A stretch of 64,000 nt of DNA from Rhizohabitans arisaemae (GTDB lineage Bacteria > Actinomycetota > Actinomycetes > Streptosporangiales > Streptosporangiaceae). The notes under the pieces were generated by a model. That model was not told the origin of the DNA and made no database searches. It saw only the letters and a list, made by a program, of their open reading frames with translations. The translations under genes were made by a program, and so were the position numbers. This document shows, in pieces, positions 34,786-38,802 of this stretch. The DNA is taken from the NCBI RefSeq assembly GCF_025996515.1, contig NZ_BLRH01000024.1:62001-126000 (forward strand), written 5' to 3'. How positions within the stretch are numbered: the first letter of the stretch is position 1; each line of letters starts with the position of its first letter.

Positions 34786-35775
34786 TCAGCGCAGGCGTAG
34801 CTGGACGTGGTTCCAGCGGTCGAGCACGGTGAAGCCGAGCCGCTCGTTGATGGCGATCATGTGCTTGTTGCTCACCTCGTTCCAGGTGATGATCTTCTCT
34901 ACGTACGGTTCGGACGAGTGGAACCACTGGGCCTGGGCGAGCTTGAGCAGCAGCCCGAGCCGGTGGCCGCGGTGTTTGCGGAGGACGACGGTGTCGCCCT
35001 GCCGGGCCCACGGTTCGGGTGAGGTCGCGTCGAGGAAGATCCGGGAGTACCCGGCCGGCTCACCGGTGTCCTTGTGGCGGGCGATCGTCGTGTACGTGAT
35101 GAGGCCGAATCGCTCGTTGACGTCCTCCAGTTCACGGACGCGTACGGTGTCCAGGTGTTCGTGTCTGAGGTCGAGGTCCCCCAGGGGCGCGTCGTTCATC
35201 CCGTTGAGCAGGGTCGTCATATCCGCCAGCAGGGTGTCGTGGACGGGGCCGACGAAACGCTGGAACTCATAGTCGTCGGCGTGCTTGACGGCGTCCTGCC
35301 GCATTCGGTGGAAATCCTGCCAGGGGACCGCGGTGAGGTCGAGGACTCTCCGCTCGTCGGCGGAGGCCATCGTGAACCCCATGGCCTTGATGAAATCGGC
35401 ACCCGGCCCGCTTGCCGGACATTCGGCGGTGATCACCCGACGGTTGTGATGCAGGGCCCGGCCGATCGCGTGGTTCAGCAGGGCCCGCCCTGTTCCGGCG
35501 CGTCGATGCTCGGGATGCACCACCAGAAGGCGTAGTAATGCGGCGTGTGGGTTGTCCGGTTCGGGAAGCAGAAGACTGTAGCCACCGGTGGTTCCGGCCG
35601 TCCATGTCTCGTTGGAGCCGGGGATCCAGCCGCCCTGGAGCCTGAGGACGAATTGTATGAGGGAAGGACGGGGACCGGGGTCGTCGATTGCCGCGCTCGC
35701 TTCGTGGGCTGCGTGCAAACCGCGGATTCGGCCACCGGGTGCGGAGAAATCAAGGCGTTCGATGTCCACAATCAC
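34786..35775 (-). CDS. Tandem-GNAT acetyltransferase
   Basis: About 329 residues with two GNAT-like halves. The N-terminal half has LLVVHPEHRRAGTGRALLNHA, containing the RxxGxG acetyl-CoA loop. The C-terminal half has TVVLRKHRGHRLGLLLKLAQ, a second RGHRLG loop, and a C-terminal WNEVSNKHMIAINERLGF. Tandem GNATs in actinobacteria (MshD-like) often modify small thiols or sugars; this one is too divergent to assign. GTG at 35775 is preferred because GGAAGG lies nine bases upstream; GTG at 35787 and 35769 are alternatives. It converges with era. Confidence 0.82.
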   Translation of the reverse strand: MIVDIERLDFSAPGGRIRGLHAAHEASAAIDDPGPRPSLIQFVLRLQGGWIPGSNETWTAGTTGGYSLLLPEPDNPHAALLRLLVVHPEHRRAGTGRALLNHAIGRALHHNRRVITAECPASGPGADFIKAMGFTMASADERRVLDLTAVPWQDFHRMRQDAVKHADDYEFQRFVGPVHDTLLADMTTLLNGMNDAPLGDLDLRHEHLDTVRVRELEDVNERFGLITYTTIARHKDTGEPAGYSRIFLDATSPEPWARQGDTVVLRKHRGHRLGLLLKLAQAQWFHSSEPYVEKIITWNEVSNKHMIAINERLGFTVLDRWNHVQLRLR

Positions 35776-35935
35776 ACCTAACCGCACCTTCCGCGGAGAG
35801 TCGACTCTCGGCTTCGACTGGGTTGATGTTCAGCTGTCAATTCGCAATCCGTACGGCATAAACCCTGTAAACGGTTGACCTAAGCTGCGTGGTAGTCATT
35901 GTGGGATTCAGAGGGTTCTGGGAGGGCTGAGCGAA

Positions 35936-36691
35936 ATGTCAGAACACGCGGAGACCCTGATCGGCGAGGCGGGACGACTCTGGCAGGAAGGCCGCTACGA
36001 AGAGGCCGAAATCCTCTTCGCGAGGGCTGCGGCGCTGGGGAATCCCCGTGCTCTGATGCGGGCGGGATTGCGGGAGTTCTTCCGGGACCCCGACGAGGCC
36101 GCGCGCCTGCTGCGGGCGGCGGCCGACACCGGTTCGGCCGAGGCGATGACGCTGTACGCGTACCAGGTGCTGGAGGAGGATCAGCCGAACGAGGCGGTCG
36201 GCTGGTATTTGAAAGCGGCGGAGACGGGGCACGCCGAGGCGATGCACCGGCTCGCCGTCCTGCTTGAGGCGGACGACCCCGAGGCCGCGGTGCGCTGGTA
36301 CCGGGAGGCGGTGCTGCGGCGGTGGACCCCCTCGATGATCAATCTCGCGCTGCTCACCAAGGATCGGGACCGCGGGGAGGCCGAGCGTCTGCTCCGGACG
36401 GCGGCGGAGAAGGGGATGACCGACGCCGTCTACGACCTCGGGCTCCTCTGCCAGGAGGACCGCCGCTTCGAGGAGGCCGAACAGTGGTACCGGCGGGCGA
36501 TCGACGGGGTCGACGTGGACGACCACGAGGACGGGGACTACGACATCTACACGCTGGTCATGTTCAACCTGGGACTGCTCCACGAGGCGACCGACCGGCC
36601 CGAGGAGGCGCTGCGCTGGTACCGCAGGGCCGCGCTCCGCGGTGACGCCCGGGCCGGAGCCGCCTCCCAACGTCTCAGCGGCACCCTCTGA
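35936..36691 (+). CDS. Sel1/TPR-repeat protein
   Basis: 251 residues built of six or so helical repeats (about 36 residues each), as in Sel1-like proteins. Examples are AAALGNPRALMRAGLREFF, AAADTGSAEAMTLYAY and AAETGHAEAMHRLAVLLE. It is likely a scaffold for protein-protein contacts, with no signal peptide or membrane segment. The ATG at 35936 has GGGAGG ten or so bases upstream. A terminator is not obvious; a palindromic promoter lies just beyond the stop codon. Confidence 0.85.
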   Translation: MSEHAETLIGEAGRLWQEGRYEEAEILFARAAALGNPRALMRAGLREFFRDPDEAARLLRAAADTGSAEAMTLYAYQVLEEDQPNEAVGWYLKAAETGHAEAMHRLAVLLEADDPEAAVRWYREAVLRRWTPSMINLALLTKDRDRGEAERLLRTAAEKGMTDAVYDLGLLCQEDRRFEEAEQWYRRAIDGVDVDDHEDGDYDIYTLVMFNLGLLHEATDRPEEALRWYRRAALRGDARAGAASQRLSGTL

Positions 36692-36730: not shown

Positions 36731-36799
36731 GTGACAATCGTAAGTACGCTTATTATAAGCGTACTTACGATTGGTGTGCTTACCATAAGTATGGTTACG
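36731..36799 (+). promoter_or_regulatory. 39-bp perfect palindrome inside a strong promoter
   Basis: The palindrome spans 36735-36773 with 19-bp perfect arms and one central base. It overlaps a sigma-70-type promoter: GTGACA at 36731-36736, a 17-bp spacer, then TATAAG at 36754-36759. Its right arm contains TAAGCGTACTTACG; a related TAAGTATGGTTACG follows at 36786-36799 (shared TAAG-N5-TTACG). The region is much AT-richer than its surroundings. Only an 11-codon frame (36791-36826) follows before the leuA leader. Repressor binding is inferred. Confidence 0.6.
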
Positions 36800-36959
36800 T
36801 CCAAGGGCCACGCCGATCAAGCCTGAACGGGTGCTCGACCGAGAGTGAGCGGAGCTCGCCGGGTTGAGGTTCCTCCCGTTCGACGGCGTTCCGTACGGGC
36901 GGCGCCGCTCTCAGGGATCGAGATGGCGTCTCAAGCTCTCCTTCGCGTCTGCTAACGTG

Positions 36960-38802
<1,843 letters not shown>

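What the first reader, a model, noticed from the sequence alone, without database searches (positions are those of the whole stretch)
36731..36799. 39-bp perfect palindrome embedded in a promoter with no gene to drive
The palindrome overlaps the -35/-10 region (GTGACA-N17-TATAAG), and a second TAAG-N5-TTACG site follows. A tight repressor should bind, but only an 11-codon frame follows before the leuA leader. Either it is the leuA promoter under an unknown regulator, or a regulated gene has been lost.
Basis: partly seen in the sequence, partly recalled or inferred. Interest (0 to 1): 0.57.

Follow-up and report, generated by a model that had tools for sequence, protein, structure and literature searches.

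The report
Orphan operator of a lost ATPase gene
The 39-base palindrome is the leftover control switch of a decayed gene for a DNA-binding ATPase-nuclease, a candidate antiviral protein; most intact relatives of that gene elsewhere in the genome carry their own version of the switch.

Summary
The palindrome is real: 36735-36773, 19/19 pairs; no other perfect palindrome in the window has arms above 11 nt. It is unlikely to be leuA's promoter: leuA has its own conserved extended -10-like element at 36950-36958, and no listed match in other genomes reaches the palindrome (list cut). The same architecture lies directly upstream of genes for an ATPase_2 / winged-helix / PD-(D/E)XK-like protein (PADLOC PDC-S27-like): 40 of 75 upstream regions have >=14 of 19 pairs, against 5 of 594 control windows. 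A model built without the window's copy finds five sites in the 8.33-Mb genome: four before intact ATPase genes (training members) and this one. Behind it, 36810-36940 holds the broken 5' end of such a gene: first of 127,860 positions. Operator sequence follows the protein's winged helix more than its ATPase domain, pointing to autoregulation. So: an orphan operator after gene decay. Other orphans exist (5 of 34 sites lack the gene), but only this one shows a relic. Binding and defence are untested.

The parts
36735..36773 (.). 39-bp perfect palindrome, the operator core
   Evidence: model R1, built without it, scores it 43.1 and 42.7 bits on the two strands
36740..36753 (.). operator unit 1, GTAAGTACGCTTAT
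   Evidence: 15-bp period with the next units
36755..36768 (.). operator unit 2, ATAAGCGTACTTAC
36770..36783 (.). operator unit 3, degenerate, ATTGGTGTGCTTAC
   Evidence: assigned by spacing and partial match
   Evidence: compare the three-unit operator of L211
36731..36759 (+). possible promoter GTGACA-N17-TATAAG overlapping the operator
   Evidence: letters; no consensus hit; inference only
36810..36940 (+). remnant of the 5' end of an ATPase_2/winged-helix/PD-(D/E)XK-like gene: no ATG/GTG/TTG in its frame at 36801-36818 where a start is expected, two codons missing, stop codon at 36846-36848 at the place of a tryptophan that is invariant in the 12 sequences of A1, rest of the gene gone
   Evidence: position-specific score first of 127,860 positions; alignments; translation; A1. 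Firm for about 36819-36872, weaker beyond
36885..36917 (+). probable relic of the P-loop region (GVPYGRRRSQG; intact genes GVVSGRRRQGK)
   Evidence: weak on its own
36950..36958 (+). leuA's own extended -10-like element, TGCTAACGT
   Evidence: conserved in the 24-sequence consensus
36966..37010 (+). leuA leader peptide frame (VLCGKLLSRRGEGP), in the region of the published LEU element
   Evidence: read; conserved; PMC1262725 passages
35936..36691 (+). neighbouring Sel1/TPR-repeat gene, not part of the system

Best explanation
The palindrome is the autoregulatory operator of a single-gene module: a protein with an N-terminal ATPase_2 P-loop domain, a central winged helix and a C-terminal PD-(D/E)XK-like domain. 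In working copies the protein's winged helix is inferred to bind, probably as dimers, to 14-bp near-palindromes repeated every 15 bp immediately upstream of its own start codon and to hold the gene down until the protein is activated. At this locus the gene was once present between the Sel1 gene and leuA and has decayed: about 130 nt of its 5' end remain, with an in-frame stop, two codons missing and no start codon, and the rest is gone up to leuA's own promoter. The operator outlived the gene. Shown: the shared architecture, the position upstream of intact relatives, the gene relic, the co-variation of operator and winged helix. Inferred: binding, repression, induction, and a defence role.
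For: (1) A 39-bp palindrome of the same layout lies close before the ATPase genes: >=14/19 pairs within 90 bp in 40 of 75 upstream regions versus 5 of 594 control windows; >=13 in 49 of 75 versus 29 of 594 (list). (2) Covariance model R1 from 30 other operators finds exactly five sites at E<=1 in the whole 8.33-Mb genome: four before intact ATPase genes (all four are training members) and the window's (not in training). (3) Relic: a position-specific matrix from the first 57 nt of 73 intact genes puts 36819 first of 127,860 positions, 29.6 bits, next best -1.9; the intact genes have a minimum of 20.6 and a median of 55.6. The four best DNA alignments begin at the same codon and each shows a 6-nt gap within the same few bases. 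(4) Among 49 operator-protein pairs, operator identity follows the winged helix (Mantel r 0.59; partial r given the ATPase domain 0.41, p 0.0005), while the ATPase domain adds little given the winged helix (0.03, p 0.30). (5) Orthologous loci in one genus show empty site, operator only, and operator plus gene. (6) On 30 operators 18 of 19 pairs show changes on both sides.
Against: No binding or transcription data. Not every homologue has a recognisable 39-bp palindrome (26 of 75 below 13 pairs; own-genome copies L216 and L217 are weak); some have three-unit arrays that the 39-bp score underrates, others may lack an operator. A few of the high scores (L268, L277, L300) are GC-rich palindromes 62-103 bp away that do not look like the operator. 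The relic beyond its first 54 nt is weak: a profile search of the translated window did not single it out (4th of 2,130 fragments, E 1.3), and in unanchored DNA alignment 3 of 1,318 window segments reached its best score (0 of 300 shuffles). In the matrix the gap was allowed only where I had already seen it. Nine other orphan operators examined show no recognisable relic behind them, so decay in place is shown for this locus only. Partial Mantel tests do not fully remove shared ancestry, and the 49 were chosen for having a palindrome.
Confidence: 0.88

Rival explanations
1. It is the leuA promoter/operator under a leucine-related or unknown regulator.
For: It lies upstream of leuA on the same strand, about 190 bp before the leader frame, and contains a possible promoter.
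Against: 228 of 297 genomes, own included, match the 430-bp query; the listed rows outside the own genome begin at window 36920 or later and none covers the palindrome (the list is cut). A conserved extended -10-like element sits directly before the leader. The same operator type lies before ATPase genes at unrelated places.
Confidence: 0.06
2. It is a transcription terminator of the Sel1 gene.
For: Folded as RNA the strand forms a very stable hairpin (-32.2 kcal/mol, z -6.2) about 43 bp behind the Sel1 stop.
Against: No T-run and no terminator-like hit; sister palindromes lie just before start codons; pairs are nearly all Watson-Crick (27 of 515 paired cells are G-U, counted) with a one-base centre, as expected of a DNA dyad.
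Confidence: 0.03
3. The palindrome is an independently mobile or att-like element that inserts without the gene (MITE-like).
For: Operator-only sites recur (5 of 34; L194, L196, L199, L204, L205); nine such orphans show no gene relic; orthologous loci show empty, operator-only and full states, and in G177, whose locus is empty, an ATPase copy lies about 0.8 kb away.
Against: Here a gene relic follows the operator; gene copies mostly have their own diverged palindromes; no target-site duplication was seen by eye in the one locus compared. Flanks of orphans were not compared systematically.
Confidence: 0.05

Closest known systems
PDC-S27 phage-defence candidates (PADLOC; passages of PMC12988326 seen)
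   Same: Three intact relatives scanned, all three matched PDC-S27 models (best E 1.8e-22 for L211; no curated cut-off is given there). The passages describe PDC-S27 as ATPase domains fused to PD-(D/E)XK members and say validation is pending for most such candidates.
   Different: The passages seen say nothing of a cognate operator; here the gene is a relic and only its operator is whole.
RptR repressor of a restriction-modification defence island (passages of PMC12255303 seen)
   Same: Works alike: a DNA-binding protein represses its own promoter through short palindromes repeated in tandem over the -10 box.
   Different: RptR is a separate repressor with 6-bp palindromes in 9-bp repeats; here the DNA-binding domain is part of the ATPase-nuclease and the units are 14 bp at a 15-bp period.
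Archaeal-type ATPase_2 proteins (PF01637; solved relative 2qen)
   Same: ATPase_2 above Pfam's cut-off for L211; 11 of 12 A1 members match at E<=0.1; PDB 2qen, 'Walker-type ATPase', E 4e-7.
   Different: L197 is below Pfam's cut-off and L213 unmatched at 1e-3; DUF234 at the C-terminus of L211 stays below its cut-off (16.9 against 22.5 bits).
IniR, mycobacterial signal-transduction ATPase (passages of PMC5760070 seen)
   Same: An ATPase domain likened to SSO1545 joined to a DNA-binding domain; a section heading says it binds the iniBAC promoter.
   Different: MalT-like and SdiA-like domains instead of a winged helix and a nuclease-like domain; not compared by sequence here.
LEU element upstream of actinobacterial leuA (passages of PMC1262725 seen)
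   Same: The region right behind the relic corresponds to it: leader frame with leucine codons before leuA.
   Different: An RNA element; the palindrome is not part of it.

Membership tests
39-bp tandem-unit operators of ATPase_2/winged-helix/PD-(D/E)XK-like genes (defined here) | 39-bp dyad of two 14-bp units with 15-bp period | tested here: met
   19/19 pairs, 43.1 bits with model R1
39-bp tandem-unit operators of ATPase_2/winged-helix/PD-(D/E)XK-like genes (defined here) | located directly upstream of such a gene | tested here: met
   met by a broken remnant at 36810-36940; no intact ATPase gene in the window (tblastn)
39-bp tandem-unit operators of ATPase_2/winged-helix/PD-(D/E)XK-like genes (defined here) | bound by the gene's own winged helix | not testable with these tools
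   co-variation supports it for the family; no binding assay
PDC-S27 phage-defence candidate | match to the PADLOC model | tested here: met
   three intact relatives scanned, all three matched (E 2.1e-15, 1.8e-22, 4.3e-13); the relic itself was not scanned
PDC-S27 phage-defence candidate | protection against phage | not testable with these tools
   none; [quoted passage not shown]
Intrinsic terminator | GC-rich stem followed by a T-run | tested here: not met
   the palindrome is 36% GC and is followed by GTGTGCTT
leuA regulatory region | conserved upstream of leuA in relatives | tested here: not met
   (listed rows; the list is cut)

The most novel reading that the evidence does not exclude
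Orphan operators are kept because they still work: after the ATPase-nuclease gene is lost, the now unrepressed promoter is co-opted for the neighbour (here leuA), or the orphan stays under control of a paralogous copy in trans, linking metabolism to a defence circuit. Orthologous orphans in three species of genus g28 still carry the dyad although their sequences differ (19 of 19 pairs in G027; 13 of 19 in G105 and in G145, counted by eye).
Probability: 0.17. Interest if true: 0.68.

Novelty: new variant of a known kind. Interest (0 to 1): 0.5.

Why it matters
It gives a widespread, untested defence candidate (PDC-S27-like ATPase-nucleases) a concrete regulatory handle: many copies sit behind their own long operator whose sequence evolves with the protein's winged helix. 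That makes autoregulation and its trigger directly testable, allows such genes and their losses to be mapped from operators, and shows that a striking 'regulated promoter with no gene' can be a fossil rather than a new regulator of leucine synthesis.

Tried and rejected
Rejected: leuA operator as original role; Sel1 terminator; RNA family (no Rfam match at gathering score in the window). The exact 15-nt arm in genome contigs gave 112 stretches (80 listed, many phyla); the closest to the 31-bp core among them had 7 mismatches, so I took them as chance. Hits L206, L207, L208 and L210 have no second unit at 15 bp by the patterns used and no ATPase gene, and were left out of the operator set. Phages: three distant homologues at 25-29% identity in faecal phage records, and none of 50 pattern matches in viral contigs confirmed; not pursued. 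A translated-profile search was too weak to show the relic; the anchored DNA matrix was needed. Sel1 relatives in 100 genomes are weak (best 42% identity) and did not help to date the insertion. Structure prediction was not run: its stated rule admits window proteins and loci from certain other tools, not the loci I held, and I did not send them. Literature on the operators: searches returned no paper; one returned 85 (15 listed; those counted for DUF234 concern DUF2345 or similar), 55 two, 59 66 (15 listed), 76 two. Nothing in these listings or in the passages I opened describes these operators; this covers only the held open-access library, by those terms.

Full report
WHAT IS THERE. The window holds a perfect 39-bp palindrome at 36735-36773 with 19-nt arms and a one-base centre. 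At 70% GC about 4e-6 are expected in 64 kb; the next longest perfect arm is 11 nt. Read more closely, it is an array of 14-bp near-palindromes starting at 36740, 36755, 36770 and 36785, exactly 15 bp apart: GTAAGTACGCTTAT, ATAAGCGTACTTAC, ATTGGTGTGCTTAC, ATAAGTATGGTTAC. The array is 38% GC in a 70% GC window.

RELATED SITES. In this 8.33-Mb genome the three exact matches to ATAAG-N5-TTACG all lie here (34 further matches have one mismatch, and the reversed control pattern matched 43 times). In 297 genomes of the same family a looser pattern matched in 76; the reversed control also matched in many, so single hits mean little, but at some places both strands match. I took 18 places by eye. Nine of the 18 hold a gene of one protein family: an N-terminal P-loop ATPase (PF01637 ATPase_2: L211 above Pfam's cut-off, L197 below it, L213 not matched at 1e-3), a MarR-like winged helix in the middle (weak, E 6e-5 for L211) and a C-terminus with a D...ExK pattern and a sub-threshold DUF234 match. 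Of the other nine, five (L194, L196, L199, L204, L205) have a paired site without the gene, and four (L206, L207, L208, L210) have no second unit by the patterns used.

THE OPERATOR FAMILY. This genome has six close full-length copies of the ATPase gene and one or two more distant hits (7 matches, 8). Four copies have a 39-bp palindrome of different sequence but the same layout, with 16-19 of 19 pairs, just before the start codon (L212, L213, L214, L215); L216 scores 12 and L217 has none by this measure. Over 75 distinct upstream regions from the family, 49 have at least 13 of 19 pairs and 40 at least 14 within 90 bp, against 29 and 5 of 594 control windows taken farther upstream. Outside the family, 9 of 20 loci from the same class have at least 13. 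Of two named records examined, one (Streptomycetaceae bacterium NBC_01309 plasmid) has a 14-pair palindrome directly before its 'ATP-binding protein', the other (Nonomuraea gerenzanensis) has none. On 30 aligned operators, 18 of 19 pairs show changes on both sides and pairing falls from 90% to 33-43% when the register is slid by one to three columns (the 30 were chosen for being palindromic, so the percentage itself is biased). A covariance model of these 30, without the window's sequence, finds exactly five sites in the whole genome at E<=1: four before intact ATPase genes (all four in the training set) and the window's palindrome. In the window alone its best E-value is 5.8e-8.

THE GENE RELIC. 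Behind the operator, 36810-36940 reads T-P-I-K-P-E-R-V-L-D-R-E-stop-A-E-L-A-G-L...G-V-P-Y-G-R-R-R-S-Q-G, to be compared with K-P-x-x-I-F-D-R-D-x-E-W-x-x-L...G-V-V-S-G-R-R-R-Q-G-K of intact proteins. A position-specific matrix from the first 57 nt of 73 intact genes, allowing small gaps at one fixed place at every position, ranks 36819 first of 127,860 window positions: 29.6 bits, next -1.9; intact genes have a minimum of 20.6 and a median of 55.6. The highest score that I saw away from an ATPase gene in the other loci scanned is 5.3 (L381, before its operator). The four best DNA alignments (L255, L261, L213, L254) start at the same codon and show a 6-nt gap within the same few bases; own-genome copies L216 and L214 align poorly at DNA level. 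Against this: unanchored DNA alignment is less striking (0 of 300 shuffles, but 3 of 1,318 window segments reach the best score), and a translated profile search is inconclusive. Taken with its exact position behind the operator I regard the relic as established for its first 54 nt and probable up to about 36940. The lesions: no start codon at the expected place, two codons missing, a stop at an invariant tryptophan, and loss of everything after about codon 45.

REGULATION. In 49 of 70 distinct full-length proteins, those with a palindrome of at least 13 pairs (21 dropped), operator identity correlates with winged-helix identity (Mantel r 0.59), less with the ATPase (0.46) and the C-terminal domain (0.44). 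Given the ATPase domain, the winged helix keeps r 0.41 (p 0.0005) and the C-terminal domain 0.15 (p 0.013); given the winged helix, the ATPase domain keeps 0.03 (p 0.30). This is what autoregulation through the winged helix predicts. Partial Mantel tests are imperfect with related sequences.

GAIN AND LOSS. In one genus (g65) orthologous loci show three states: G177 has neither operator nor gene at that place (it has an ATPase copy about 0.8 kb away), G167 has a near-perfect operator and no gene, G064 has operator and gene. In 120 family genomes the model finds 34 distinct sites (54 rows, counted by eye) at E<=1e-4 in 20 genomes (strict filters, so it misses some known operators such as that of G078:C61). 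By comparing positions by eye, 28 lie beside an ATPase gene, one beside a gene lacking its N-terminal 100 or so residues (G096), and five have none: the window's, G058:C2, G027:C60, G078:C3 and G015:C7; for the last four no homologue lies within the 6.1 kb fetched. None of these four, and none of L194, L196, L199, L204 and L205, shows a recognisable 5' relic, so a relic is seen at one of ten orphans, this one. The G058 orphan is letter for letter the operator of this genome's L212 copy and so is no independent find of the model. The G027 orphan lies at the same locus as those of G105 and G145 (neighbouring genes): the three sequences differ; G027 is a perfect dyad, the other two have 13 of 19 pairs (by eye).

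leuA. The neighbouring leuA needs no help from the palindrome: a conserved extended -10-like TGCTAACGT lies at 36950-36958, just before the leader frame (consensus of 24 sequences), and the leader lies in the region of the published LEU element (passages of PMC1262725). In six of 29 relatives with fetched leuA upstream DNA, relatives of the acetyltransferase-like gene at 34786-35787 lie within about 1.5 kb of the leuA leader; in L152 the two are direct neighbours, so Sel1 and the ATPase gene were probably placed between them later (inference).

CONCLUSION. The feature is the orphan operator of a decayed, probably autoregulated ATPase-nuclease gene related to the unvalidated defence candidate PDC-S27 (passages of PMC12988326). 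I found no description of the operator family in the literature searched (capped listings, open-access library only); RptR (passages of PMC12255303) is the nearest working analogue. That defence is its function, that the protein binds the operator, and that orphans are retained for use are all untested.

Noticed in passing
L380 3004-3042; L194 4466-4500: Orphan operators in G058 and G206 lie just upstream of large genes whose products look secreted (by eye), a possible sign of promoter reuse.
   Followed up: no
L383 3017-3055 and 3298-4380: Orphan operator in G015 followed by a frame with a D...ExK-like pattern (by eye), possibly a different nuclease behind the same kind of operator.
   Followed up: no
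L384 1293-2470: In G096 an ATPase copy lacks its N-terminal 100 or so residues directly behind an intact-looking operator: possibly decay at an earlier stage.
   Followed up: partly
window 36946-37055: Conserved leuA leader (LEU element region): no Rfam family matches it at the gathering score although it is conserved across the genomes aligned.
   Followed up: partly
L200, L202, L209, L211: Some operators have three 14-bp units at a 15-bp period instead of two (by eye); the number of units varies between copies.
   Followed up: partly
MT838516.1, MT838402.1, MT837173.1: Distant homologues (25-29% identity) of the ATPase in unannotated faecal phage records.
   Followed up: no
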